64,000 bases of DNA from Alphaproteobacteria bacterium (GCA_016794125.1 JAEUKT010000002.1:124001-188000); one strand, 5' to 3'. Counted from the stretch's first letter, positions 16,729-35,251 are shown. Translations and numbers: made by a program. Notes: a model not told the origin generated them from the letters alone.

Positions 16729-18690
16729 ATGGGTAAAATTGTCGGGATTGACCTCGGTACCACGAAATCAGCCATCGCGATTTACGAGAACGACCAGCCG
16801 AAAATCTATCAGAACCTGAAGGGCAAGCGCACGACGCCGTCCTATGTCGCCCTGAAAAAAACCACCGACAAGAAAACCAAGGAAGTCTCCGAAGAATGGA
16901 TCGTCGGCGAAGCCGCGAAAAACCAGACCATCATGAACCCGCTGAACACGCTGTACGGCGTGAAGCGCCTGATCGGCCGCCGCTTCGACGATCCCGAAGT
17001 GCAGAAAATGGAAAAACTGGCTTCCTATAAAATCGTGAAAGGCCCGAACGGCGACGCCTGGGTTGAAGTCGATGGCAAGCCGATGGCGCCCGTGCAGATT
17101 TCCGCGATGGTCCTGCGCGAACTGAAAGAAGCCGTTGAAAAGCAGATCGGCGAAAAAGTGACCGAAGCGGTCATCACCGTTCCCGCTTACTTCAACGACG
17201 CGCAGCGCAAAGCGACCAAAGACGCGGGCGAAATCGCCGGTCTCGACGTGAAGCGCATCATCAACGAGCCCACCGCAGCTGCCCTTGCATACGGCATGGA
17301 CAAGCAGGAAAGCGGCAAAGTCGCGGTTTACGACCTCGGCGGCGGCACGTTCGACGTGTCCATCCTCGACCTGTCGATGGAAAAAGGCGGCAGCATGATC
17401 CGCGTGCTGGCGACCAACGGCGACACGTTCCTCGGCGGCGAAAACTTCGACGAACGCCTGTCCGAATTCCTGATCGGCAAAATCAACGAAGAGCACGGCA
17501 CCGATATCGACATCCATGACAAAAATTCCCGCGCGACGCACGCAACGGCCCTTCAGCGCATCCGCTCCGAAGCGGAACGCGTGAAGATCGAGCTGTCCAC
17601 GCAGGAAGTTTCCGAAGTTTCGCTGCCCTTCCTGATGCAGACGCCGGAAGGCCCCGTGAACTTCAGCTACGAACTGACCCGCAAGGAACTGGAAGGCCTG
17701 GTGCAGGACCTGATCGACAAAACCCTGCCCCCGTTCCAGAAATCGCTGGCCGACGCAGGCCTGAAGCTGTCCGACCTCGACGATGTGATCCTCGTCGGCG
17801 CGCAGACCCGCATGCCGAAAGTCGTCGAAACCGTGAAGAACTTCTTCGGCAAGGAACCCCGCCGCGACGTGACCCCCGATGAAATCGTGGCGATGGGCGC
17901 ATCCGTGCAGGCCGCAATCCTGCAAGGTAAAGTCGAAGACGTCCTGCTGCTCGACGTCATTCCGCTGACCATCGGCATCCGCACCGCCGGCGACGTGATG
18001 TTCAAGGCGATCCCGCGCAACTCGACGATCCCGACGGAATACAAAGACACCTTCTCCACCTCCGTCGATAACCAGCCCAACGTGGAAATCCGCGTTTATC
18101 AGGGCGAGCGCGACAAGGCGTCCGACAACAAGCTGCTCGGCAACTTCACCCTCGACGGCCTGCCCCCCGGCAAAGCCGGCACGGTTGAAGTCGAAGTGAC
18201 GCTGGCGATCGACGCGGACGGCGTGCTGAACGTCGAAGCGAAGAACGCAGCCACCGGCCGCGCGCAGAAGATCGTCGTGAAGGCAAACGGCGGCCTGTCG
18301 GAAAACGACGTCGCCCGCATGCTGAAGGAAGCCGAAGCCAACGCCGAAAAAGACCGCGCCTTCCGCGAGTCCGTGACGGCGCTGGCGAATGCCGACTTCG
18401 AACTGAAGGACGCAAGCCGCCACAAGGAGCAGGATTACTACAAACAGGCTCCCGAAGAGCTGAAAAAAGCCTTCGAAGAAACAGTGAAAGACCTGACGAC
18501 GGCACGCGACAAGCGCGACGTCGCCCAGATCATCGAAAAGACCGAAAAACTGAAAACGGTCCTGACGTCGATCGGCGAAGCCTTCACGGGCGCCGCTTCC
18601 TCCTCGGCCACCGAAACGCCCGCTCCGGAAGCAAAACCCGAAGCAGCCGCCGAAGAAAAACCGAAAACACCCAAAGCCCCCACGCCGTAA
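16729..18690 (+). CDS. dnaK: Hsp70 chaperone, DnaK homologue with atypical C-terminus
   Basis: A 653-residue Hsp70. The ATPase domain (1 to about 385) shows IGIDLGTTKS-like phosphate-binding (VGIDLGTTKSA), VPAYFNDAQRKATKDAG, INEPTAAALAYGMDK and VYDLGGGTFDVSILD. The substrate-binding domain follows (DVIPLTIGIRTAGD onward) with a helical lid. Two features differ from standard DnaK: the usual DVTPLSLGIET segment is altered, and the tail after about residue 615 is Ala/Pro/Glu/Lys-rich and lacks the acidic EEVD-like end. No dnaJ or grpE lies nearby. It may be the main DnaK of a divergent lineage or a second Hsp70. RBS GGAG is 9-13 bases before the ATG. Confidence 0.9.
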   Translation: MGKIVGIDLGTTKSAIAIYENDQPKIYQNLKGKRTTPSYVALKKTTDKKTKEVSEEWIVGEAAKNQTIMNPLNTLYGVKRLIGRRFDDPEVQKMEKLASYKIVKGPNGDAWVEVDGKPMAPVQISAMVLRELKEAVEKQIGEKVTEAVITVPAYFNDAQRKATKDAGEIAGLDVKRIINEPTAAALAYGMDKQESGKVAVYDLGGGTFDVSILDLSMEKGGSMIRVLATNGDTFLGGENFDERLSEFLIGKINEEHGTDIDIHDKNSRATHATALQRIRSEAERVKIELSTQEVSEVSLPFLMQTPEGPVNFSYELTRKELEGLVQDLIDKTLPPFQKSLADAGLKLSDLDDVILVGAQTRMPKVVETVKNFFGKEPRRDVTPDEIVAMGASVQAAILQGKVEDVLLLDVIPLTIGIRTAGDVMFKAIPRNSTIPTEYKDTFSTSVDNQPNVEIRVYQGERDKASDNKLLGNFTLDGLPPGKAGTVEVEVTLAIDADGVLNVEAKNAATGRAQKIVVKANGGLSENDVARMLKEAEANAEKDRAFRESVTALANADFELKDASRHKEQDYYKQAPEELKKAFEETVKDLTTARDKRDVAQIIEKTEKLKTVLTSIGEAFTGAASSSATETPAPEAKPEAAAEEKPKTPKAPTP

Positions 18691-20446: not shown

Positions 20447-20812
20447 CTGATCTTCTCGCCTGTAAGTTAACTGTATCAAAGTACCGTTATGTCCTTATTG
20501 AGCATTTTAGGAGAGGATTCCAGAACTGGCAAATCAAATCGTTTCGGTAATAAACGGAAAGCCTTTTGGATTTGAACATACGTTATAATTCAATAACTTA
20601 TTAACCGACTGACATCGTTAAATTTTCGTAAATATGGCGCTTGCGGTGCGACATGGTTTATGGCAAAACTAGCCCACTCCGCATGGGCAGCAGATTCGAT
20701 TCAAGGCTTGTGGAGGGATGGGCAAATTTTATATTTTCCAGCTCCCTCCCCGCGATTCTCCTCCCGCGCAAAACTTAGTTACGGAATCAATTTTTTACAA
20801 AAGGTGTGTCCC
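20447..20812. other. Intergenic region upstream of the TpsA gene
   Basis: 366 bases, clearly more AT-rich than the flanking genes. TATAAT at 20584-20589 is the best -10-like hexamer; I see no matching -35 at the normal spacing. The tpsA frame stays open upstream to 20660, but that stretch does not look coding. Nothing else is recognised. Confidence 0.5.
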
Positions 20813-23800
20813 ATGTCCCAGAACAAAGCCCAGAACTCCGCCCTGCGTCTCCTCAACGCAACGCTGATGGGTAAAAAACTGCTCGCCTCGACGGCGATCA
20901 CGGTGGCTGGCGTGCTGGCGGCATCTTCTTCGGCCTACGCGGTCGGCCTTGACGAAACACCCACGGGCGGCGTTGTCGTCGGCGGGCAGTCGACCATCTC
21001 CTACGGGCAGGGCAGCATGACGGTCGACCAGACGACCGACCGCTCCGTCATCAACTGGAACACCTTCAACATCGGCCAGAACGCGAACGCGACCTACAAC
21101 CAGCCGAACGCAAACTCCCTCTCCGTCAACCGCGTCAGCGGTCAGGACCCCTCGCAGATCCTGGGCACGCTGCGCTCCAACGGCAAGATCATGATCATCG
21201 ACCCGAACGGCGTGTTCTTCTCGAAAACCGCCGTCGTCGACGTGGGCGGCATTATCGCCACCACCGGCGAGCTGGATGCGATGAACCAGGACCAGCTGAT
21301 GGCCGGCAACAAGTTCCAGATTTCCAACATCGGCGCGAACCCCGACGCGAAAATCGAAAACGCGGGCTCGATCACCGCGGCGCAGGGCGGCCTTGTCGCC
21401 TTCGTGGCACCCTGGGTTTCCAACTCGGGCTTCATCAACGCGAAACTCGGCTCCGTGACGCTGGCGGCCGGCGCGAAAATGACGGTCGACCTGGCTGGCG
21501 ACAACCTGATTTCCATCGCCGTCGGCGACAAGCTGCAAAAAGCGCTGGTCGAAAACCGCGGCACCATCGACGCACAGGGCGGCCGCGTCGTCATGAGCGC
21601 GAACGCGGCGAAAGGCATCGTCGACGAAGTCATCAACATGTCCGGCGTCATCAAGGCCAACAGCTTCTCCCAAAAAGGCGGCAAGATCATCCTGGGCGGC
21701 GGCGGCGGCAAAGTGAAAGTCTCCGGCCAGCTGGATGCCAGCGGCGAAAAAGGCGGCGGCTCCATCGATGTGCGCGGCAAGGATATCGAGATCGAACAAT
21801 CGGCGGTCATTTCGGCTGACGCCAACGGCCAAGGCGACGGCGGCTCCGTCATCGTCTATGCCGACAACCTCGCCATCATCAACGGCGGCCTTTCCGCGCG
21901 CGGCGGCAAACAGGGCGGCAATGGCGGTTTCATCGAGACTTCCGGCAACGAGCTGGGCGTGAGCGACACCGCGTCGGTCGACGCATCGGCCTATTTCGGC
22001 GAAGCCGGCCTGTGGCTGCTTGATCCCCAAACCATCGTCATCACGACCGCCCCCACCTCGGTCTGGGCGGCGCTTACCGGCACGCCGCTGACAGACGGCA
22101 ACACGTATTCTACTCTTGGCTTCCAGGTCGTCAGCAATACGGTCCTCAGCACCGCGCTCAGCACCGGCGGCGGCACGAACGTCACCGTCCAGACGGGCGC
22201 CTCGACCAGCGGCACCACCTATGGCAGCAACGCCGGGAATAACAGCGTGGTTTCGGGCGACGGCGACATCATCGTGCGCAAGACCATCACGCATAACGGC
22301 AACAACAACGCCCTGCTGACGCTGACCGCGCATGACGACATCATCATGGAAAACGATGCCGACATCACTCACGGCACCGGCACCGGCAAACTCAGCGTCA
22401 CGATGAACGCCAACGGCGCGCATAACGACGATCTGGCCGACAACGGCGTGCTGGTGAAGACTGGCAGCGATATTTTCACCAATGGCGGCAACATCATTTT
22501 CAACACCCCGTCCAACGTCCGCGTCAGCGGCACGCTGGATGCGATACGCGCGGCGGACAACACGGGCGGCAACATCACCCTCAACAACGGCGGCCTTTTC
22601 TATGGCGCAGCCGACAGCCTGAAGACCAAGGGTATCGGCACAATCAGCCTGAACCAGAACGCCACCATCGGCGGCTACACGGTCGGCCCGCTTGCCGTCG
22701 TTTCGTCGATCCAGAACGCGATCGACGCCATTAGCAACACCGGCGACGGTCTGAACACCGTCAATGTCGGCGCCAGCCTGTTGTGGACGGAAACCGTCGC
22801 TGCGGATCACAAGAACCTCCTCATCAAGGGCGCAGCTGCCTACGGCTCCACCTTCGCGCTCGGCGGCTTCGATGTCAGCGCGACCAATGTCACCATCGAC
22901 GGCTTCAACTTCGCGGCGCTGTCCTCCGGCATCAACGTGACCGGCACGAATGACTCGGTCATCAACAACAAATTCAGCGTCATGGGATCTGGCGTCACCT
23001 CGACCGGCTCGACCGGCCTTGATGTGAAGAACAACACCTTCACCGGCATCCTCGGCACCGCCGTCTCGCTGACCGGCACGACCGGCGCGGAAGTTTCCGG
23101 CAACACGCTGACCGCTTCGGTCGGCGATGCCGTGACCGTCACGGGCGGCACGGGCAACGCGGTTTCGGGCAACAGCTTCCTGGGCAGCCTGCAGCACGCG
23201 GTCAACGTGAATGGCGGCGACACCGCTGTTTCCAACAACACGCTCACCGGTTCGGTCGGCGACGCGATCCTCGTTACCAACGGCGCGGGTGCATCCGTTT
23301 CCGGCAACACCCTGACCGGCTCCCTGCAAAAAGGCATCAACGTCAACGGCGGCAATACCGCCGTGACCGGCAACACCCTGACCGCGACCGTCGGCGACGG
23401 CATTTATGTGCTGAACGGCAACGGCGCAACCGTTTCCGGCAACCAGCTGCTGGGTTCGCTGTCCAAAGGCATCAACATTGAAAACGGCAACACCGCCGTT
23501 TCCAGCAACACCCTGACCGGCTCGGTCGGCGATGCAATCGTCGTGACCAACGGCGACGGCGCAAGCGTGTCGGGCAACCAGCTGCTGGGTTCCCTGCAGC
23601 ACGGCATCAACGTGAACGGCGGCAATACCTCCGTTTCGTCGAACACACTGACCGGTTCGGTCGGCGATGCGATCCTTGTCACGAACGGCAACGGCGCGAC
23701 CGTCACCTCCAACACCCTGCTGGGCTCGCTGTCGAAAGGCATCAACATCAACGGCGGCAACACGGCTGTCAGCCTCAATACCCTAACCGCGACTGTCGGC

Positions 23801-26800
23801 GACGGCATTTATGTGCTGAACGGCAACGGCGCGACCGTTTCCGGCAACAAGCTGCTCGGCTCGCTCTCCAAAGGCATCAACATTGAAAACGGCAACACCG
23901 CCGTTTCCGGCAACACGCTCACCGGTTCGGTCGGCGACGCGATCGTCGTGACCAACGGCGACGGCGCAACCGTGTCCGGCAACCAGCTGCTGGCAAGCCT
24001 GGCCAACGGCATCAACATCAACGGCGGCAATACCGACGTTACCTCCAACACCATGACCGGCACGGTCGGCGATGCGGTGCTGGTGACGGACGGCAACGGC
24101 GTGGATGTCGATAACAACACCATCATCGGCGGCCTTGCCAGCGGCGTGCATATCGTGGGCGGCGCGCTGATCGGCGTGACGGGCAACGATATCGGCGGCA
24201 CCGCGGGCGCAGGCATCCTGTCGTCGGGCACCACCGGCCTGACGGTTGACGGCAACACCCTGATCGCAACCGGCCTGACCAACAACGCCGACGCGATCCA
24301 TGTGGATACCGCGACCAATGCGCAAGTGAAGAAAAACACTGTCATCGGCACCGGCGGCAACGGCATCTATGTCAATTCCAACGGCGGTTCCGTTTCGGAC
24401 GGCAACAGCATCATCGGCGCGGCCAAGAACGCGATCCAGCTGGACAACAGCACGGGCGTGGACGTTTCCGGCAACATCGTGCTGGGCGCGGCGCAGGACG
24501 GCGTGGCAGTCACCGGCGGCGCGGACAACACGGTCGCGGGCAACGCGATCGGCGTGGTCGGCGGCCACGGCATCTCCGGCCTGAATTCCGGCAACCTGAC
24601 CATCAACGGCCTGAACATTATCGCGGGCGCGCAGAAAGACGGCATCCATGTCGAAGGAGGCAACAGCCTTGACGTGTCCGGCAACCTGGTCGTGCTGTCC
24701 AATGAAAACGGCATCTCCATCGACGGCGGCGCGGGCGGCGCAGCCGATGCGACGGTTTCGGGCAACATCGTGCTGGCGGCCACCAACGGCGACGGCATCC
24801 GCGTCGCGAATATCGACGGCCTTGACCTGAACGGCAACGTCGTCGCTCTCGCCGGCGACAACGGCATCGAACTGAACAAGGTCAACAACGCCGATGTCAC
24901 CCTGAACGCGGCGGGCGGATCGAAAAACCACGCGCTGCTGCTGAAGGACGTGACGAATACCGAAGTCACCCTCAACGCCTTCGGCCTCACCACCTCGACC
25001 GCCGCCGAAGAAGGCGACGGCGTGCATGTGGACGGCGGCGACACCATCGAGATCACCGGCAACCTGATCGGCGAAACCAATGACGACGGCATCGAAGTCA
25101 CCGGCGGCGCGAAAAACATGAAGCTTGGCCTGAACGCCATCCTGAACGCGGGCCAGGACGGCATCGACGTGAACAACGCGACCGACACCGACGTCAACCT
25201 GAACGTCATCACCAACGCCGGCGACAACGGCATCGAGGTCGTGAACGCGACCAACGCCAACATCACCGGCAACGGCATCATCAATGCCGGCAACAACGGC
25301 ATCTTCGTCGACCCCTCGACCGGCATCACCGCGCTGAACATCATCACGGGCGCCGCGAATAACGGCATCCAGATCGTCGACAGCAACGGCTGGACCGTGG
25401 CGGCGAACGCCGTGCTGAATTCCGGCAATGACGGCATCCATATCGACAATTCGGACGACGCAATTGTCGGCCTGAACTATGTCGAAGGCTCGCAGAACAA
25501 CAACATCCATGTCGAAGACAGCAACGGCGTCATCGTCGCGGCAAACATCGTCAAGGACAGCGTGAACGGCAACGGCATCGACCTGCTGCGCAGCAACAGC
25601 ACGCTGGTCACGCTGAACGCGGTTTCCGGCAGCGGCAACAACGGCATCGCGGGCGATACCGTCGAAGACACGATCATCGCCCTGAACGCCGTTTCCGGTT
25701 CGGGCAATGACGGCATCCATGTCGACCGCGCGGACGACACGCTCATCACCCTGAACGACGTCTCCGGCTCGACCGATGACGGCATCGATGTTGCGAACGC
25801 GAACAACACCGCCATCGCACTGAACAAAGTCGGCACTTCGGGCGACAACGGCATCGACACCTTCAAGACCACCAACCTGCTGATCGCGGCGAACGCGGTT
25901 ACCGGTTCGGGCAATGATGGCATCCATGTCGACGGCGCTGATGACACCATCATCACCCTGAACGATGTGTCCGGCTCGACCGATGACGGCATCGATGTTG
26001 CGAATGCGAACAACACCGCCATCGCGCTGAACAAAGTCGGCACTTCGGGCGATAACGGCATCGACACCTTCAAAACCACCAACCTGCTGGTGGCCGCAAA
26101 CGCGGTTACCGGTTCGGGCAATGATGGCATCCATGTCGACGGCGCTGATGACACCATCATCACCCTGAACGATGTGTCGGAATCCAAGGACGACGGGATT
26201 GACGTGGCGGCGGCGAACGATACCGCCATCGCGCTCAACAAAGTCACCACCTCGGGCGATAACGGCATCGATACCCTCGGCACCCGCAACCTGCTGGTGG
26301 CCGCGAACGCGGTCAGCGGTTCTGGCAACGATGGCATCCATGTTGCGCTGGCCGACGACACCATCATCACCCTGAACGATGTGTCGGAATCGAAAGACGA
26401 CGGCATTGACGTGGCGGCGGCGAACGATACCGCCATCGCGCTCAACAAAGTCACCACCTCGGGCGACAACGGCATCGATACGCTCGGCACCGCCAACCTG
26501 CTGGTGGCCGCAAATGCCGTGTCCAAATCTGGCAATGACGGCATCCATGTCGCAGGCGCGCTGGGCACGCTGATCACCCTGAACGACGTGTCGGAATCGA
26601 AAGACGACGGCATCGACCTGGGCGCGGCGGCGGGCAGCATCATCGCCCTCAACAAAGTGTCGAAATCGGGCGACAACGGCATCGATACCGTCGCAACCGC
26701 CGGCACCGTGATCGCGGCAAACGCGGTTTCGGAATCGGGTAATGACGGCATCCACGCCAACTTCGCACTCGGCACCCTGATCGCGCTGAACGATGTGACC

Positions 26801-29062
26801 GGCTCCGGCCACAACGGCATTGACGTCGACAACGCGGCGCTGACCGAAATCGCGCTGAACAGCGTATCGGCTTCGGGCCACAACGGCATCGACCTGCGCA
26901 ACGCGGCCGCAACCGGCATCCACCTGAACAACGTGAACGGCGCAGGCAATGACGGCATCCACGTGAAGAACGCGGCGCTGACCGATATCTCGCTGAACAA
27001 TGTGTCGGATGCGCAAGGCGACGGCATCGATGTCGATAAGGCGCTGCTGACCAACATCGCGTTCAACAAGGTCGAACGCTCCGGCGACAACGGCATCGAG
27101 CTGACCGACGCCTTCGGCACGCTGGTCACGCTGAACAACATCAGCGTATCCGGCAACGACGGCATCCACGCGAAAAACGTGCTGGGCACCACCATCGCGC
27201 TCAACACGGTTTCGGCGTCCAACGACGACGGCATCGATGTCGATGACGCAACCGGCACGATCATCGCGCTGAACGCGGTGAACGGTTCGGGCAGCAACGG
27301 CATCGAACTGACCGACGCCTTCGGCACGCTGGTCGCCTTCAACGGCGTCACGGGCAGCGGCGAAAACGGCATCTATGCCGACAACGCCAACGCAACCGCG
27401 CTGTTCGGCAACGATGTGGCGGGCAGCTATATCAACGGCATCGCCGTGCGCAACAGCGACGATGTGGCGATCGCCTATAACCGCGTCACCGGCACCACCT
27501 ACGGCGACGGCATCATCGTCGAAAACGGCGACAATGTCGGCATCACCGGCAACAACGTCAGCGATGTAGGCAACAACGGCATCACCGCCGATTACGTGAG
27601 CAACCTGTCGGTCAACGACAACCGCGTGACGGGCGGCGGCAATAACGGCATCGAAGTGATCTCGAGCGACGGCGCGCAAATCGCCGGCAACCATGTCGAG
27701 GGCTTCTTCAACGGCATCCGCGTGCTGTACAGCGACGCGGTCGACGTGATCGACAACTGCATCAGGTTTGTGCGCAACGACGGCATCCAGGCTTACTTCG
27801 CCGACAGCATCCACATCCTTGGCAACATGGTGTCGAACTACGGCGATGACGGCATCCAGGTCGCCTACAGCAACGGCGTGGTCCCCGAGCCCGAACTGCC
27901 GCCCACCGACGGCAACGGCAACGAGGACGGCAACGACGAAGGCGGCCAAATCAGCCGCATCGCCGCGAATGACGAAGCCCGCGACGGCCGCATCATCATC
28001 CAGGGCAACACCGTCATCGGCAATTACCAGGCGCCCGCCGGCGAAGAAGGCGGCGAGCAGCAGACCGACCGCCAGGCCGCCTATAAAGGCGACTACGGCG
28101 CGACGACCGGCATCCGCCTGGGCGACAACGAAGGCTTCTACGGCGAAGGCGAAATCCAGCCGCAGGTCATCAACGGCGTCTATGGCGATTTCAGCGGCGT
28201 CGGCAACGTGCTGGTGGATGACAACGACATCGTGAACAACAATGTCGGCCTCGATGCCCGCGCGTACAACAACGGCACCATCGAAATCTCCGGCAACCGC
28301 TTCACGCAGAACGATATCGGCGCGTGGATCGGCTCGGGCCTGATCGACCTGACCGGCAAGGGCAACACCTTCACCGGCGGATCGACCGCGCTGCGCTTCG
28401 AGCCTTCGATGGCTTACTACCCCGGCTACGACTACCCGCTGCCGGCGGTTGAAGGCCCGCAGGAACAGCCGGGCGGCTGGGTGTCCGCGAGCCTCAACCT
28501 CGTCGACAACTCGCTCGGCGCGCAGGTGTTCGAGCAGCAGACGAATTACTATGTCGACCTGCAAAACGGCGCGTTCTTCGCCCCCGACAGCCCCACCATC
28601 ATCGACGGCACGCTGGCGACCTATGACGGCGTGTCCGGCGGCCACATGACGATGGCGCAGTACCTGGCGATCGAGGCGATGCTGAACGATTACGACGACA
28701 ACAGCAGCCTCGGCCAGATCTTCGCAGGCTTCTTCGACATCGACGACAACCAGATCCTGCAAAAGGTCAAGGGCAACGGCTATCGCCCCGGCAAGGCAGG
28801 CATCACTGTTCTGGCGCTGCCGACCATCCCGACGGGCCCGACCAGCCACTTCTTCACCATCCAGGACCTGGCGGATATCGCGCCGGCGGCGGGCGGCGAC
28901 GATAACGGCACCCCGAACCCCGCAGCGCTTGGCAATATCGAGCCTGCGGCGGGCGCGGCGGCTTCCTGCTGGGGAGCGGTCGGCGGCAATGCCAACGTCA
29001 ACATCAACCTGAGCGAGGATGTGAGCAGCATTCTGGCCGATAACGCCAGCTGCCAGCAGTAA
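20813..29062 (+). CDS. Giant two-partner-secretion exoprotein (TpsA), beta-helix repeat adhesin
   Basis: About 2749 residues. A long signal peptide (cleavage after SAYA, residue 43) is followed by a TPS/haemagglutination domain (about 44-300: SYGQGSMTVDQTTDRSVINW, NQPNANSLSVNRV, ILGTLRSNGKIMIIDPNGVFF), the export signal read by TpsB. Residues about 600-2350 are right-handed beta-helix coils of 22-23 residues of the form N-x-V-x-G-S-G-N-D-G-I-x-V, like NosD/pectate-lyase repeats. Three long stretches are also duplicated at DNA level. The C-terminal 350 residues are non-repetitive and end with a Cys...Cys pair 28 residues apart (C2719, C2747). Only one other mature cysteine is visible (VIDNCIRF). 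I chose ATG 20813, which begins the n-region with GGTG upstream. Likely surface adhesin or matrix protein; the role is inferred. Confidence 0.92.
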   Translation: MSQNKAQNSALRLLNATLMGKKLLASTAITVAGVLAASSSAYAVGLDETPTGGVVVGGQSTISYGQGSMTVDQTTDRSVINWNTFNIGQNANATYNQPNANSLSVNRVSGQDPSQILGTLRSNGKIMIIDPNGVFFSKTAVVDVGGIIATTGELDAMNQDQLMAGNKFQISNIGANPDAKIENAGSITAAQGGLVAFVAPWVSNSGFINAKLGSVTLAAGAKMTVDLAGDNLISIAVGDKLQKALVENRGTIDAQGGRVVMSANAAKGIVDEVINMSGVIKANSFSQKGGKIILGGGGGKVKVSGQLDASGEKGGGSIDVRGKDIEIEQSAVISADANGQGDGGSVIVYADNLAIINGGLSARGGKQGGNGGFIETSGNELGVSDTASVDASAYFGEAGLWLLDPQTIVITTAPTSVWAALTGTPLTDGNTYSTLGFQVVSNTVLSTALSTGGGTNVTVQTGASTSGTTYGSNAGNNSVVSGDGDIIVRKTITHNGNNNALLTLTAHDDIIMENDADITHGTGTGKLSVTMNANGAHNDDLADNGVLVKTGSDIFTNGGNIIFNTPSNVRVSGTLDAIRAADNTGGNITLNNGGLFYGAADSLKTKGIGTISLNQNATIGGYTVGPLAVVSSIQNAIDAISNTGDGLNTVNVGASLLWTETVAADHKNLLIKGAAAYGSTFALGGFDVSATNVTIDGFNFAALSSGINVTGTNDSVINNKFSVMGSGVTSTGSTGLDVKNNTFTGILGTAVSLTGTTGAEVSGNTLTASVGDAVTVTGGTGNAVSGNSFLGSLQHAVNVNGGDTAVSNNTLTGSVGDAILVTNGAGASVSGNTLTGSLQKGINVNGGNTAVTGNTLTATVGDGIYVLNGNGATVSGNQLLGSLSKGINIENGNTAVSSNTLTGSVGDAIVVTNGDGASVSGNQLLGSLQHGINVNGGNTSVSSNTLTGSVGDAILVTNGNGATVTSNTLLGSLSKGININGGNTAVSLNTLTATVGDGIYVLNGNGATVSGNKLLGSLSKGINIENGNTAVSGNTLTGSVGDAIVVTNGDGATVSGNQLLASLANGININGGNTDVTSNTMTGTVGDAVLVTDGNGVDVDNNTIIGGLASGVHIVGGALIGVTGNDIGGTAGAGILSSGTTGLTVDGNTLIATGLTNNADAIHVDTATNAQVKKNTVIGTGGNGIYVNSNGGSVSDGNSIIGAAKNAIQLDNSTGVDVSGNIVLGAAQDGVAVTGGADNTVAGNAIGVVGGHGISGLNSGNLTINGLNIIAGAQKDGIHVEGGNSLDVSGNLVVLSNENGISIDGGAGGAADATVSGNIVLAATNGDGIRVANIDGLDLNGNVVALAGDNGIELNKVNNADVTLNAAGGSKNHALLLKDVTNTEVTLNAFGLTTSTAAEEGDGVHVDGGDTIEITGNLIGETNDDGIEVTGGAKNMKLGLNAILNAGQDGIDVNNATDTDVNLNVITNAGDNGIEVVNATNANITGNGIINAGNNGIFVDPSTGITALNIITGAANNGIQIVDSNGWTVAANAVLNSGNDGIHIDNSDDAIVGLNYVEGSQNNNIHVEDSNGVIVAANIVKDSVNGNGIDLLRSNSTLVTLNAVSGSGNNGIAGDTVEDTIIALNAVSGSGNDGIHVDRADDTLITLNDVSGSTDDGIDVANANNTAIALNKVGTSGDNGIDTFKTTNLLIAANAVTGSGNDGIHVDGADDTIITLNDVSGSTDDGIDVANANNTAIALNKVGTSGDNGIDTFKTTNLLVAANAVTGSGNDGIHVDGADDTIITLNDVSESKDDGIDVAAANDTAIALNKVTTSGDNGIDTLGTRNLLVAANAVSGSGNDGIHVALADDTIITLNDVSESKDDGIDVAAANDTAIALNKVTTSGDNGIDTLGTANLLVAANAVSKSGNDGIHVAGALGTLITLNDVSESKDDGIDLGAAAGSIIALNKVSKSGDNGIDTVATAGTVIAANAVSESGNDGIHANFALGTLIALNDVTGSGHNGIDVDNAALTEIALNSVSASGHNGIDLRNAAATGIHLNNVNGAGNDGIHVKNAALTDISLNNVSDAQGDGIDVDKALLTNIAFNKVERSGDNGIELTDAFGTLVTLNNISVSGNDGIHAKNVLGTTIALNTVSASNDDGIDVDDATGTIIALNAVNGSGSNGIELTDAFGTLVAFNGVTGSGENGIYADNANATALFGNDVAGSYINGIAVRNSDDVAIAYNRVTGTTYGDGIIVENGDNVGITGNNVSDVGNNGITADYVSNLSVNDNRVTGGGNNGIEVISSDGAQIAGNHVEGFFNGIRVLYSDAVDVIDNCIRFVRNDGIQAYFADSIHILGNMVSNYGDDGIQVAYSNGVVPEPELPPTDGNGNEDGNDEGGQISRIAANDEARDGRIIIQGNTVIGNYQAPAGEEGGEQQTDRQAAYKGDYGATTGIRLGDNEGFYGEGEIQPQVINGVYGDFSGVGNVLVDDNDIVNNNVGLDARAYNNGTIEISGNRFTQNDIGAWIGSGLIDLTGKGNTFTGGSTALRFEPSMAYYPGYDYPLPAVEGPQEQPGGWVSASLNLVDNSLGAQVFEQQTNYYVDLQNGAFFAPDSPTIIDGTLATYDGVSGGHMTMAQYLAIEAMLNDYDDNSSLGQIFAGFFDIDDNQILQKVKGNGYRPGKAGITVLALPTIPTGPTSHFFTIQDLADIAPAAGGDDNGTPNPAALGNIEPAAGAAASCWGAVGGNANVNINLSEDVSSILADNASCQQ
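23102..24181 (+). repeat. 135-bp tandem repeat array within tpsA (8 units)
   Basis: Units start at 23102, 23237, 23372, 23507, 23642, 23777, 23912 and 24047. Each encodes 45 residues, one 23-residue and one 22-residue coil, of the pattern NTLTGSVGDAI-VTNG-GA-VSGN then -LLGSL-KGIN-NGGNTAVS. Units 405 bases apart (23372 and 23777) are more alike than adjacent ones, pointing to duplication of a three-unit block. Confidence 0.9.
25685..27409 (+). repeat. 69-bp coil array in tpsA with 207-bp super-repeat
   Basis: The asparagine that opens every third coil recurs at 25685, 25892, 26099, 26306, 26513, 26720, 26927, 27134 and 27341, exactly 207 bases apart, so 24 consecutive coils have 23 residues with no insertion or deletion. 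The first five 207-bp units are close copies at DNA level; later ones keep the phase but differ in sequence. The three coils in a unit follow the types NAVSGSGNDGIHV, NDVSGSTDDGIDV and NKVGTSGDNGIDT. Confidence 0.9.
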
Positions 29063-29082
29063 TCGTTAACCAAGCTATCCAT

Positions 29083-29126
29083 AACCCTCCGTTGCAGAAA
29101 AACCACGCAACGGAGGGTTTTCTTTT
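29083..29126 (+). terminator. Intrinsic terminator after tpsA
   Basis: A perfect 13-bp stem aaccctccgttgc (29083-29095) / gcaacggagggtt (29107-29119) followed by TTCTTTT. It lies between tpsA and tpsB, so tpsB is either expressed by readthrough or from its own promoter. Confidence 0.88.
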
Positions 29127-29250
29127 GCGCGCCTCCGGAAACCCGATTAACTTTTTGAATTAAATGTTCTTTTCACTATACTGGGCAGCAGAACGGGCTT
29201 TCCGCCTGCCGCGGCAATTTATCCGCCGCCACAAAAAATTGGGCACAGAC

Positions 29251-30933
29251 ATGATCAAGTTTCCGAAGCTTTTCCTTTCCATGATGACCGCCGCCACGCT
29301 GTTCGCGTCACAGGCTTACGCGCAGGCCGTGCCGTCATCGGCCGAAGCACCGCGCGCCGGCGGCCAGATCGCGCCGATGCCCACGCAAACGCTGCCCGAA
29401 ATCGGCACCAAAATTCAAACCGGCGGCGCGGTCACCGCACCGGCGGGCGCGGAAAAAGTGAAGCTGACGCTGAAATCCGTCGCTATCGAAGGCCAGACCG
29501 TCTATGACGACCTGCAGATCCGCAGCGTCTATGACAGCATGATCGGCACCACCATTACGCTGGCCGATGTGTTCGGCATCGCCGACCGCCTGACCGCGAA
29601 GTACCGCAACGACGGCTATATCCTGACCCAGGTCGTGGTGCCCCCGCAGACCATCGATGGCGGCCACGTGAAACTGCGCGTCGTCGAAGGCTTTGTCGAA
29701 AACGTCACCATTCAGGGCGCATCCCGCGCGAACCCCGCCTGGCTGGAGGGTTATGCCGCGAAACTGCGCGCGCAGAAACCGCTGAATTCCAAGGCACTCG
29801 AGCGTTACGTGCTGCTCATCAACGACCTTGCGGGCATGAATGCCCGCGCGGTGCTGTCGCCGTCGAAAACGCCCGGCGCCACCGACATTACCCTGGTCGT
29901 CGACCAGAAGCCGTTCGATGCGTTCTTCCAGATCGACAACCGCGGCACGCGCTTCCTCGGCCCCCTGCAGACCAACGCAGGCGTGCGTTTCAACAACGCG
30001 CTCGGGTTCTATGAAGGCCTGAATTTCCAGGGCGTCTGGACGCCCGACCACACGGAACTGGCCTATGGCGCATTCACCTGGCAGCAGCCGCTGAACCATG
30101 AAGGCACGCGCCTGTCCACCACGCTCGGTTATACCAAGACCGATCCCGGCTTCACGCTGACGCCGTTCGACGTGGAAGGCACCGCGAAATCCGTCAACCT
30201 CGACCTGACGCATCCCTTCATCCGTTCCCGCAATAAAAACCTGTACGGTTCGCTGAAATTCAACTTCCTGAATTCGGAACGCAGCGACAACATCCCGGGC
30301 GGCGGCGCCGAAGACAGGCTGCGCGTACTGCGTGCCGGCGGCACGTTCCAGTTCACCGACACCCTGCTGGGCGTGAACACCCTGTCGGCCGAAGCTAGCA
30401 AAGGCCTTCACTTCCTGAACGCCAGCGACAAGGGCGATGCCCGCCTGACGCGCGCCCTTGGCGATCCGCAATTCTTCAAGGTGAACGCCGAAATCAGCCG
30501 CACCCAGCGCATCACGAACATTTTCGAAGCCTTCCTGTCGGCGGCGGGCCAGCTGTCGTCCAGCACGCTTCTGGCATCGGAGGAATTCGGCGTGGGCGGC
30601 GTCAATTACGGCAGCGCCTACGACAACTCGGAAATCACCGGCGAAGACGGCTATGCCGCGCGCTTCGAACTGCGCGCCAACAACCCCGTCGCCCTGCCCG
30701 TCAACCTGCTGCAGCTCTACGGTTTTGTGGACGGCGGCGAAGTGCACGACCCCGACAACGCGGTTGCCCGCGACCGCCGCCGCTCCATCGTGTCCGCCGG
30801 CGGCGGCGCGCGCCTGAACCTCGACGACCGCTTCGCCGGCACGCTCGAGCTTGCGGTGCCGATGACGGCCGATGTGCAGACCGAAGGCGACGACAACCCG
30901 CGCCTGTTCGCAACCATCACCGGCAAGTTCTGA
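29251..30933 (+). CDS. TpsB outer-membrane transporter (ShlB/FhaC/HecB family)
   Basis: About 560 residues with a signal peptide (MIKFPKLFLSMMTAATLFASQAYA-Q). Two POTRA domains follow: the first spans about 65-150 (KLTLKSVAIEGQTVYDDLQI...YRNDGYILTQVVVPPQ...VRVVEGFVENV pattern), the second ends near 225 (NARAVLSPSKTPGATDITLVVDQKP). The rest is a 16-strand-type beta barrel ending in Phe (TITGKF), as outer-membrane proteins do. It exports the TpsA encoded just upstream by recognising its TPS domain. I chose ATG 29251 because it begins the signal peptide; the frame is open from 29164. Ribosome-binding site is weak. Confidence 0.92.
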   Translation: MIKFPKLFLSMMTAATLFASQAYAQAVPSSAEAPRAGGQIAPMPTQTLPEIGTKIQTGGAVTAPAGAEKVKLTLKSVAIEGQTVYDDLQIRSVYDSMIGTTITLADVFGIADRLTAKYRNDGYILTQVVVPPQTIDGGHVKLRVVEGFVENVTIQGASRANPAWLEGYAAKLRAQKPLNSKALERYVLLINDLAGMNARAVLSPSKTPGATDITLVVDQKPFDAFFQIDNRGTRFLGPLQTNAGVRFNNALGFYEGLNFQGVWTPDHTELAYGAFTWQQPLNHEGTRLSTTLGYTKTDPGFTLTPFDVEGTAKSVNLDLTHPFIRSRNKNLYGSLKFNFLNSERSDNIPGGGAEDRLRVLRAGGTFQFTDTLLGVNTLSAEASKGLHFLNASDKGDARLTRALGDPQFFKVNAEISRTQRITNIFEAFLSAAGQLSSSTLLASEEFGVGGVNYGSAYDNSEITGEDGYAARFELRANNPVALPVNLLQLYGFVDGGEVHDPDNAVARDRRRSIVSAGGGARLNLDDRFAGTLELAVPMTADVQTEGDDNPRLFATITGKF

Positions 30934-34234: not shown

Positions 34235-35194
34235 TTAATTCCGCTGGCGGCGCTGCTGTAATTGCTGCATCCGCTGGCGCGCTTTCTCGGCCGGCGTCGC
34301 TTCGTCGTTGTCGTTCCGCTTTTCATTCCATTTTTCGCGGCGTTCTTCGACCTTTTCGCGGCGTTCTTCCATCGCGGCTTTGCGCTCGGCTGCTTTTTCC
34401 TTGCGGATTTCCTGTTTTTCCTCGCGCTGCTGTTTCAGCCTTTCCTTGCCGCCCTCGCCGCCGCGGTTTTGCATGATCCTTTCGCGCAGCGCCTTGCGCA
34501 GTTCCATCTGGCGGGGCTGCATGCTCTGGATGCGCGCACGCATCTCGCCGCCGCGCGCCAGTTTCAGCCGGTCGCGCAGCCCCTGCAAGCGCCCCTGCTT
34601 CCATTCACCGGGTGCCAGCGGCGCGGCGTTGCGCTTGGCGATCATCGTGCCCTGCCCGCGCTGCAGCCGCGCGGTGTTGCCGCCGCTGGAGACATCGATC
34701 TGCCCGTCATCGACATACACGTCATAGCTGCCGTCCGTATCGGGCGCGACGGTGATATCGGTGCCGCGGATGCCGATCGTGCCGGCGGGGCTGTCGATGC
34801 CCACATCGGGGTTTTCTTTTTTCGCAACAAGCCCGCTGACATATCGGAAACCGCCGCGCAGCACAGAATAGCGTGCGCGGTTCTTGCTGGAATCTTCGGA
34901 ATCGAAAACATATTCATCGACCTTGAAGCGCGAATTTTCGGCGAGCGTCCATTCGGTGTTGTCGGCCAGCAAAATGAACAACCGCGATTTTTCGCCGGTC
35001 GCCACCACATCGCCCAGTTCGATCGTGTCCTGCAATTTCAGCGAAAACGGCATGCCGCCCGCGCGCGACAGGGTCGCGGTTCCTTCGATTTCCACCACCG
35101 TGCCAATCACATCGGCCTTGGCCATCGCGGGAAAGAAAATAACAAGGACGGTAAAAAACGCGGCAATCAAACGGTTTGTCAGGCGATTTGTCAT
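34235..35194 (-). CDS. Secreted FecR-domain protein with charged helical tail
   Basis: About 319 residues. Signal peptide (RLIAAFFTVLVIFFPAMAKA), then a FecR domain at about 25-165 (VIGTVVEIEGTATLSRAGG, LQDTIELGDVVATGEKSRLFI, DSPAGTIGIRGTDITV). The last 110 residues are extremely rich in Arg, Lys, Glu and Gln (RKEKAAERKAAMEERREKVEE pattern), predicted to be one long helix. Classical FecR partners (an ECF sigma factor and TonB receptor) are not adjacent, and there is no cytoplasmic anti-sigma region; this belongs with the stand-alone periplasmic FecR-domain proteins. ATG 35194 gives a clean signal peptide. Confidence 0.85.
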   Translation of the reverse strand: MTNRLTNRLIAAFFTVLVIFFPAMAKADVIGTVVEIEGTATLSRAGGMPFSLKLQDTIELGDVVATGEKSRLFILLADNTEWTLAENSRFKVDEYVFDSEDSSKNRARYSVLRGGFRYVSGLVAKKENPDVGIDSPAGTIGIRGTDITVAPDTDGSYDVYVDDGQIDVSSGGNTARLQRGQGTMIAKRNAAPLAPGEWKQGRLQGLRDRLKLARGGEMRARIQSMQPRQMELRKALRERIMQNRGGEGGKERLKQQREEKQEIRKEKAAERKAAMEERREKVEERREKWNEKRNDNDEATPAEKARQRMQQLQQRRQRN

Positions 35195-35251
35195 GGCTTC
35201 AGGCCCTTTCAAGGCACGGGGATATAGGCTGTTACGGCGATCACACCAGAA

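What the first reader, a model, noticed from the sequence alone, without database searches (positions are those of the whole stretch)
20813..30933. Giant two-partner secretion pair with a beta-helix exoprotein of about 2749 residues
The TPS export domain is followed by dozens of NosD-like right-handed beta-helix coils instead of the haemagglutinin repeats of FhaB-type proteins. Coils N-x-V-x-G-S-G-N-D-G-I-x-V run for about 1750 residues, predicting a very long rigid rod. TPS domain, beta-helix coils and the adjacent TpsB are directly readable; an adhesin or matrix role is inferred.
Basis: partly seen in the sequence, partly recalled or inferred. Interest (0 to 1): 0.65.

Follow-up and report, generated by a model that had tools for sequence, protein, structure and literature searches.

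The report
Cleavable beta-helix surface adhesin, two-partner secreted
This bacterium makes a giant rod-shaped surface protein that is exported by its own outer-membrane pore, appears to be plugged into that pore by a disulfide knot, and carries cutting sites that a protease elsewhere in the genome, unusually fused to a sensor domain for the signal molecule c-di-GMP, probably uses to release it.

Summary
An ATG at 20813 opens a 2749-residue TpsA (signal peptide, TPS domain), with a TpsB gene downstream. Residues 763-2359 form at least 68 NosD-type coils of about 23 residues; 37 of them fold as a right-handed beta-helix (pLDDT 96; AlgE Z 35, NosD Z 33). That makes it a long two-partner adhesin, which alone is fairly ordinary. 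They are among the invariant features of this tail in the bacterium's order, which probably contains Micavibrio. The genome has one LapG-type protease and no detected LapD. That protease is fused to an N-terminal MshEN domain, a known c-di-GMP-binding fold, with a signal-peptide-like segment between. The fusion is present in nearly every genome of the order and was not seen in 140 genomes from elsewhere in the class. Best explanation: a CdrA-like rod adhesin, held in its TpsB pore and released by a one-protein c-di-GMP-sensing LapG. Cleavage, c-di-GMP binding and adhesion are inferred. New variant of a known kind.

The parts
20813..29062 (+). tpsA gene, 2749 aa exoprotein (ATG 20813)
   Evidence: start supported by frameshifted upstream region in the closest relative L032
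20813..20941 (+). extended signal peptide, residues 1-43 (ends AYA-VG)
   Evidence: read directly from the translation
20963..21730 (+). TPS export domain
   Evidence: PF05860 110.9 bits; TIGR01901 68.9 bits; PDB EtpA 8vba E 4e-53, HxuA, HMW1 2odl
23099..27889 (+). NosD-type right-handed beta-helix rod, residues 763-2359, at least 68 coils of about 23 aa
   Evidence: AF2 of residues 1508-2359 pLDDT 96.3; VIA Z 35 AlgE6, 33.5 NosD
23093..24101 (+). two-coil (135 bp) and six-coil (405 bp) DNA duplications in the rod
   Evidence: Tandem Repeats Finder
25684..26689 (+). three-coil (207 bp) DNA repeats, about 86% identical, 4.9 copies
   Evidence: Tandem Repeats Finder
27890..29059 (+). conserved C-terminal region after the rod (residues 2360-2749); its last part is the plug/anchor module
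   Evidence: 49% identical to the G004 ortholog, 35% to L176, whereas the rod is about 29% identical to G004
28883..28894 (+). first PAAG, LapG consensus site (residues 2691-2694)
   Evidence: consensus [T/A/P]AAG from PMC13090378
28943..28954 (+). second PAAG, LapG consensus site (residues 2711-2714)
28967..29053 (+). C-terminal cysteine pair C2719 (in SCW) and C2747, putative disulfide hook
   Evidence: only 3 Cys in the 2749-aa protein; pair invariant in the module
29083..29119 (+). intrinsic-terminator hairpin between tpsA and tpsB
   Evidence: -25.8 kcal/mol, z -5.65; same hairpin in G004 with a compensatory pair change
29155..29182 (+). promoter-like site for tpsB (TTGAAT-16-TATACT)
   Evidence: not more than chance by count (3 found, 2.6 expected); both hexamers also present in G004
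29251..30933 (+). tpsB gene, outer-membrane transporter (ORF opens at 29164; ATG 29251 likelier, directly before a signal peptide)
   Evidence: ShlB and POTRA_2; CdiB structure 6wim E 4e-16; 62% identical to the TpsB next to the G004 ortholog

Best explanation
TpsA is a long surface adhesin. It crosses the inner membrane with its signal peptide, its TPS domain engages the POTRA domain of TpsB, and it threads through TpsB and folds outside into a beta-helix of about 70 coils, roughly 33 nm at 0.48 nm per coil, plus the TPS and linker part. The last stretch stays in the periplasm, where C2719 and C2747 form a disulfide-closed plug that locks the protein in its pore, as in HMW1, HxuA and CdrA. 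Just before this plug lie two PAAG sites in the periplasm. The only LapG-type protease found in the genome (G000:C2 about 928.75-929.86 kb, outside the window) has a cytoplasmic MshEN domain, then a hydrophobic signal-peptide-like segment, then a periplasmic LapG domain. c-di-GMP binding to MshEN is proposed to control the protease, so that the rod is kept or released with the c-di-GMP level, without a LapD. Shown by computation: architecture, folds, conservation of sites and cysteines, the fusion, and no detected LapD. Inferred: disulfide, anchoring, topology, cleavage, c-di-GMP binding, direction of control, and adhesion.
For: TPS domain and TpsB. Rod. C-terminus: the invariant columns in the five-sequence tail alignment include both PAAG motifs, CW and the last Cys. 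Tails of seven further genomes show the same PAAG/TAAG and CW...C pattern, and the tail profile matches 67 of 114 genomes of the order (the weakest matches cover only the PAAG part). In 37 TpsA tails, LapG consensus and cysteine pair occur together in 11, consensus alone in 1, pair alone in 6, neither in 19 (Fisher p 2e-4); 21 sites observed against 1.8 in shuffles. Protease: LapG structures 4u65 E 9e-35 and 4fgo E 2e-31, MshE 5htl E 3e-13 in one profile; AF2 model with both domains at pLDDT about 94-95; 5htl at 0.5 A over 55 residues, 49% identity; 24-5-24 spacing in 30 of 30, 2 of 30,000 shuffles. LapD_MoxY_N absent from 18 family genomes, with the model ringing in 36 of 120 phylum genomes. 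Eleven GGDEF matches over cut-off in the genome. Precedent: CdrA held by a cysteine hook and cut by LapG at a C-terminal TAAG (PMC7484184, PMC7616799).
Against: The protease gene is not linked to tpsAB. The MshEN-LapG fusion occurs in nearly all genomes of the order, more than carry the TPS domain or the tail module, so it probably has other substrates as well and co-occurrence is not diagnostic. The Pfam MshEN model does not call the domain, and the window genome's own protein breaks the published relaxed motif at one position (Ser at position 11 of the second motif). The LapG consensus described for P. fluorescens includes a preceding DP, which is here EP or AP. An AxA-type signal peptidase site follows the hydrophobic segment in 30 of 30; if used, it would separate sensor from protease. 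Rows in the tail comparison are related, so the Fisher p overstates independence.
Confidence: 0.6

Rival explanations
1. Ordinary two-partner adhesin that is permanently anchored by the cysteine hook (HMW1-like); the PAAG motifs are part of the plug sequence and are not cut by any LapG.
For: The cysteine pair also occurs without PAAG in six TpsA tails of the order, so a hook without a site exists here. The protease is unlinked.
Against: The PAAG motifs are invariant while the sequence around them varies, occur twice, and in one case are TAAG (L225), another accepted form. A LapG homolog is present in the genome.
Confidence: 0.2
2. The rod is released by LapG, but control is not by c-di-GMP on the fused MshEN domain: signal peptidase cuts the protein after the internal signal sequence, so the sensor acts only on export or on nothing, and another receptor controls the protease.
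For: A basic residue, hydrophobic stretch and AxA-type site follow MshEN in all 30 homologs. Family members also carry second LapG copies with a plain signal peptide (L109, L083).
Against: The MshEN motif with fixed spacing is kept across the order, which is unexpected if it did nothing. No LapD was detected.
Confidence: 0.15
3. The beta-helix is a polysaccharide-modifying or polysaccharide-binding enzyme on the cell surface rather than a structural rod.
For: The closest solved folds are alginate epimerases and phage tailspikes.
Against: About 70 similar coils with DNA-level duplications and coil numbers that differ between relatives (about 75, 68, 53); no DPHE motif.
Confidence: 0.03
4. Contact-dependent inhibition (CdiA-like) toxin.
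For: TpsB resembles CdiB structures.
Against: No toxin domain in Pfam or NCBIfam, and the C-terminus is conserved between genera and carries an anchor instead of a variable toxin.
Confidence: 0.02

Closest known systems
CdrA/CdrB of Pseudomonas aeruginosa (type Vb secretion, LapG-regulated)
   Same: Two-partner secretion, long repeat rod, C-terminal cysteine hook in TpsB, LapG consensus site near the C-terminus.
   Different: Rod is NosD-type coils, not MBG2-type repeats; two sites, not one; no LapD found; the protease carries its own MshEN domain.
HMW1 and HxuA of Haemophilus influenzae
   Same: TPS domain related by sequence; C-terminal disulfide anchor in the TpsB pore.
   Different: Their anchors are not described, in the review read, as LapG-regulated; rod family differs.
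EtpA of enterotoxigenic E. coli
   Same: Best PDB match of the TPS domain (8vba, E 4e-53).
   Different: Different repeat region; the tails were not compared.
LapD-LapG (Pseudomonas fluorescens) and DvhD-DvhG (Desulfovibrio vulgaris)
   Same: LapG-type periplasmic protease, [T/A/P]AAG site, c-di-GMP context.
   Different: There the c-di-GMP receptor is a separate protein; here a MshEN domain is fused to the protease.
MshEN domain of Vibrio cholerae MshE
   Same: 24-5-24 residue motif; 49% identity and 0.5 A over 55 residues.
   Different: Fused to a LapG protease; the MshEN paper lists ATPase, glycosyltransferase and signalling-domain fusions, and its main text mentions no peptidase (PMC5013675).
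NosD and mannuronan C5-epimerases
   Same: Same right-handed beta-helix coil type.
   Different: Those are much shorter proteins without TPS domain or TpsB.

Membership tests
Two-partner secretion exoprotein (TpsA) | N-terminal TPS domain after a signal peptide | tested here: met
   signal peptide read from sequence
Two-partner secretion exoprotein (TpsA) | Cognate TpsB transporter with POTRA and barrel encoded nearby | tested here: met
   ShlB and POTRA_2; CdiB 6wim; conserved pair in G004; strand number not tested
Two-partner secretion exoprotein (TpsA) | Export depends on TpsB | not testable with these tools
   needs an experiment
FhaB-type filamentous haemagglutinin | Haemagglutinin (Fil_haemagg) repeats | tested here: not met
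   Pfam at E 0.01 lists only Beta_helix and NosD
NosD-type right-handed beta-helix | Repeat coils over the curated cut-off and beta-helix fold | tested here: met
NosD copper-site maturation protein | Encoded with NosF/NosY and involved in nitrous oxide reductase assembly | tested here: not met
   the flanking genes scanned with Pfam are not of that kind
CdrA adhesin | MBG2-type repeat rod | tested here: not met
   no MBG match in Pfam; so it works like CdrA but is not filed as CdrA
LapG-regulated two-partner adhesin (works like CdrA) | [T/A/P]AAG site and cysteine pair at the C-terminus | tested here: met
LapG-regulated two-partner adhesin (works like CdrA) | LapG-type protease in the genome | tested here: met
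LapG-regulated two-partner adhesin (works like CdrA) | LapD receptor | tested here: not met
   PF16448 absent in own and family genomes
LapG-regulated two-partner adhesin (works like CdrA) | Cleavage by LapG releases the protein | not testable with these tools
   needs an experiment
MshEN c-di-GMP domain | Two 24-residue motifs with a 5-residue spacer and matching fold | tested here: met
   the published relaxed pattern is met by 8 of 30, and the window genome's own copy misses it at one position
MshEN c-di-GMP domain | Binds c-di-GMP | not testable with these tools
   needs an experiment
CdiA toxin | C-terminal toxin domain with immunity gene | tested here: not met

The most novel reading that the evidence does not exclude
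An order-wide LapD-independent Lap system: a single protein joins a cytoplasmic MshEN c-di-GMP receptor to a periplasmic LapG protease through an internal signal-peptide-like segment, and controls release of cysteine-hooked two-partner rods through duplicated PAAG sites, including in the predator Micavibrio.
Probability: 0.45. Interest if true: 0.75.

Novelty: new variant of a known kind. Interest (0 to 1): 0.6.

Why it matters
LapD-LapG is the textbook inside-out c-di-GMP switch for adhesin release. A receptor and protease in one chain would be a simpler form of that switch and would make the signalling step directly testable with one protein. The same tail module is in two genomes that appear to be Micavibrio aeruginosavorus strains (one contig length equals the published ARL-13 genome size), a predator that attaches irreversibly to prey, so the switch could bear on how an epibiotic predator holds and leaves its prey.

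Tried and rejected
LapA-type retention modules in the own genome: only three weak hits below cut-off, which read as short FecR-like proteins, so no LapA-type adhesin was found as an alternative LapG substrate. Genomic neighbourhood of the protease for a LapD-like partner: none recognised by eye in 18 kb. A large ORF near a LapG copy in G003 first looked like a TpsA, but its sequence reads as an NAD-specific glutamate dehydrogenase (recall, not searched). tRNA-Ser call inside tpsA: not supported by Rfam. Viral contigs: only distant LapG-domain relatives aligned from about residue 140 on, so no MshEN fusion seen there. Cooley 2016 on CdrA is not held, so its details come from papers citing it. 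The rod sequence alone has no PDB match by sequence.

Full report
Observation. The ORF at 20660-29062 (+) contains an ATG at 20813 that gives 2749 residues. This start is preceded by AAAGG and is favoured because the in-frame extension is disrupted by indels in the nearest relative L032. The TPS domain (PF05860, E 1.2e-31; TIGR01901) is related by sequence to the solved EtpA, HxuA and HMW1 domains. It is the only TPS domain found in this 3.16 Mb genome. The PF05860 model did not appear in the whole-protein Pfam scan but did in the six-frame search; the domain is not in doubt.

Rod. Pfam Beta_helix and NosD match with 13 and 14 stretches. An iteratively trained 23-position coil model marks 68 coils at 763-2359, with invariant Asn at position 2, mostly Gly-Ile at 11-12 and hydrophobic residues at 4, 14 and 22. 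Shuffled protein gives 4 to 10 coils at a fraction of the score. AlphaFold2 on residues 1508-2359, with other coils of the same protein and of relatives as alignment, gives pLDDT 96.3 and only strands. VIA-align gives Z 35 to AlgE6 and AlgE4 and 33.5 to NosD. Highly regular repeats tend to give confident models, so this supports the fold class rather than the exact geometry. DNA-level duplications of two, three and six coils and about 75, 68 and 53 coils in orthologs suggest that rod length changes by duplication, while both ends are kept: against the G004 ortholog identity is 50% at the N-terminus, 29% in the rod and 49% at the C-terminus.

C-terminus. The protein has three cysteines in 2749 residues; the last two are 3 and 31 residues from the end. 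The G004 ortholog has only two cysteines, both in the tail. The tail alignment has as invariant columns, among others, A-PAAGGD, a second PAAG, CW and the last Cys. The published LapG consensus is a targeting helix, DP, then [T/A/P]AAG cut between the alanines (PMC13090378); CdrA is cut by LapG at a C-terminal TAAG (PMC7484184) and held in CdrB by a cysteine hook (PMC7616799); HMW1 and HxuA anchors hold a disulfide loop in the pore (PMC5422565). Among 37 TpsA tails of the order the two features associate (11, 1, 6, 19; Fisher p 2e-4; the rows are related, so p is indicative), and 21 consensus sites are seen where 1.8 are expected. The tail profile matches 67 of 114 genomes of the order, the weakest matches covering only the PAAG part. 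The tails printed for further genomes keep the pattern, one with TAAG.

Protease. One Peptidase_C93 protein exists in the own genome. Its N-terminal part shows KLGDLLVNSGMITKCQLDKALATQ, five residues, then RLGKALVEQGSLSAVQLYRKLAEQ, the 24-5-24 layout of MshEN (PMC5013675). All 30 homologs read have this spacing; 8 of 30 meet the published relaxed pattern, and the own protein misses it at one position; 2 of 30,000 shuffles reach the looser pattern. The family profile hits both LapG and MshE/PilF structures, and the AlphaFold model matches LapG (E 1e-10) and MshE (0.5 A, 55 residues). The LapG part keeps Cys in GGDC, His and Asp among its invariant columns. Between the domains lies a basic residue, a hydrophobic stretch and an AxA-type site in all 30; whether it is cut is open. 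The fusion is in nearly all genomes of the order (111 of 114 match; most best matches span both domains). In 142 genomes of the class only the two from the own order match over both domains. The main text of the MshEN paper mentions no peptidase fusion, and four papers in the library hold both MshEN and LapG, reviews by title; only their titles and abstracts were seen. This is a statement about what was searched, not proof that nobody has described it.

LapD. PF16448 finds nothing in 18 family genomes and rings in 36 of 120 genomes of the phylum, not in the own. The genome has 12 GGDEF matches, 11 over the cut-off, so c-di-GMP signalling is plausible.

Where the genome belongs. The closest named record is an unclassified alphaproteobacterial MAG. 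Contig G056:C1 has 2,481,983 bases, the published size of Micavibrio aeruginosavorus ARL-13 (PMC3189940); I infer that G056 is that strain and that the window lies in its order. Its TpsA (L177, 2345 aa) has the same tail. L176 (2167 aa) comes from G052, another genome of that genus; its N-terminus is 40% and C-terminus 35% identical to the window protein. The ARL-13 genome paper was searched only for chosen words; hemagglutinin does not occur in it and the secretion passages shown name types I and II.

Gene layout. A strong hairpin with a T tract lies between tpsA and tpsB (z -5.65), kept in G004 with a compensatory change, followed by a promoter-like pair of hexamers also present in G004. tpsB may therefore have its own promoter and start at 29251.

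Mechanism and limits. The best reading is export, folding outside, retention by the hook, and release by cleavage at PAAG under c-di-GMP control. The first two steps follow from established TPS biology, the third from conserved cysteines, the last two are hypotheses with specific tests. The protease is not linked to tpsAB and is more widespread than the tail module, so it probably has other substrates, and the direction of c-di-GMP control is unknown.

Noticed in passing
window 27818-27905 (-): ARAGORN calls a tRNA-Ser inside the tpsA rod; Rfam does not support it, so it is very probably a false call.
   Followed up: yes
window 23783-28849 (-): An antisense ORF of 1688 aa runs under the rod, and another of 935 aa under the 5' part; likely a by-product of repeat composition.
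   Followed up: no
window 16729-18690 (+): A DnaK/HSP70 gene below the TIGR02350 prok_dnaK cut-off lies upstream of tpsA; its homologs sit beside TPS genes in G004 and G003 too (73-75% identity).
   Followed up: partly
window 20660-20812: The leader before tpsA is strongly conserved at the DNA level in the closest relative although not as protein; no Rfam match.
   Followed up: partly
window 34235-35212 (-): FecR-like short protein with a highly charged C-terminal tail; weak match to the LapA retention model below cut-off.
   Followed up: partly
L061, L062, L059, L063, L064, L101, L102: Relatives carry several very different TpsA proteins (open frames up to about 3700 aa) with other repeat types; several end without the PAAG tail.
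   Followed up: partly
L175, L165, L170, L171: TpsA proteins of other families in the order end in a conserved LCS(Y/F)...YC or LC cysteine pair with no PAAG, perhaps a permanent hook.
   Followed up: partly
G010:C9, G008:C69, G006:C243: Clusters of several adjacent divergent Peptidase_C93 genes in relatives of another genus.
   Followed up: no
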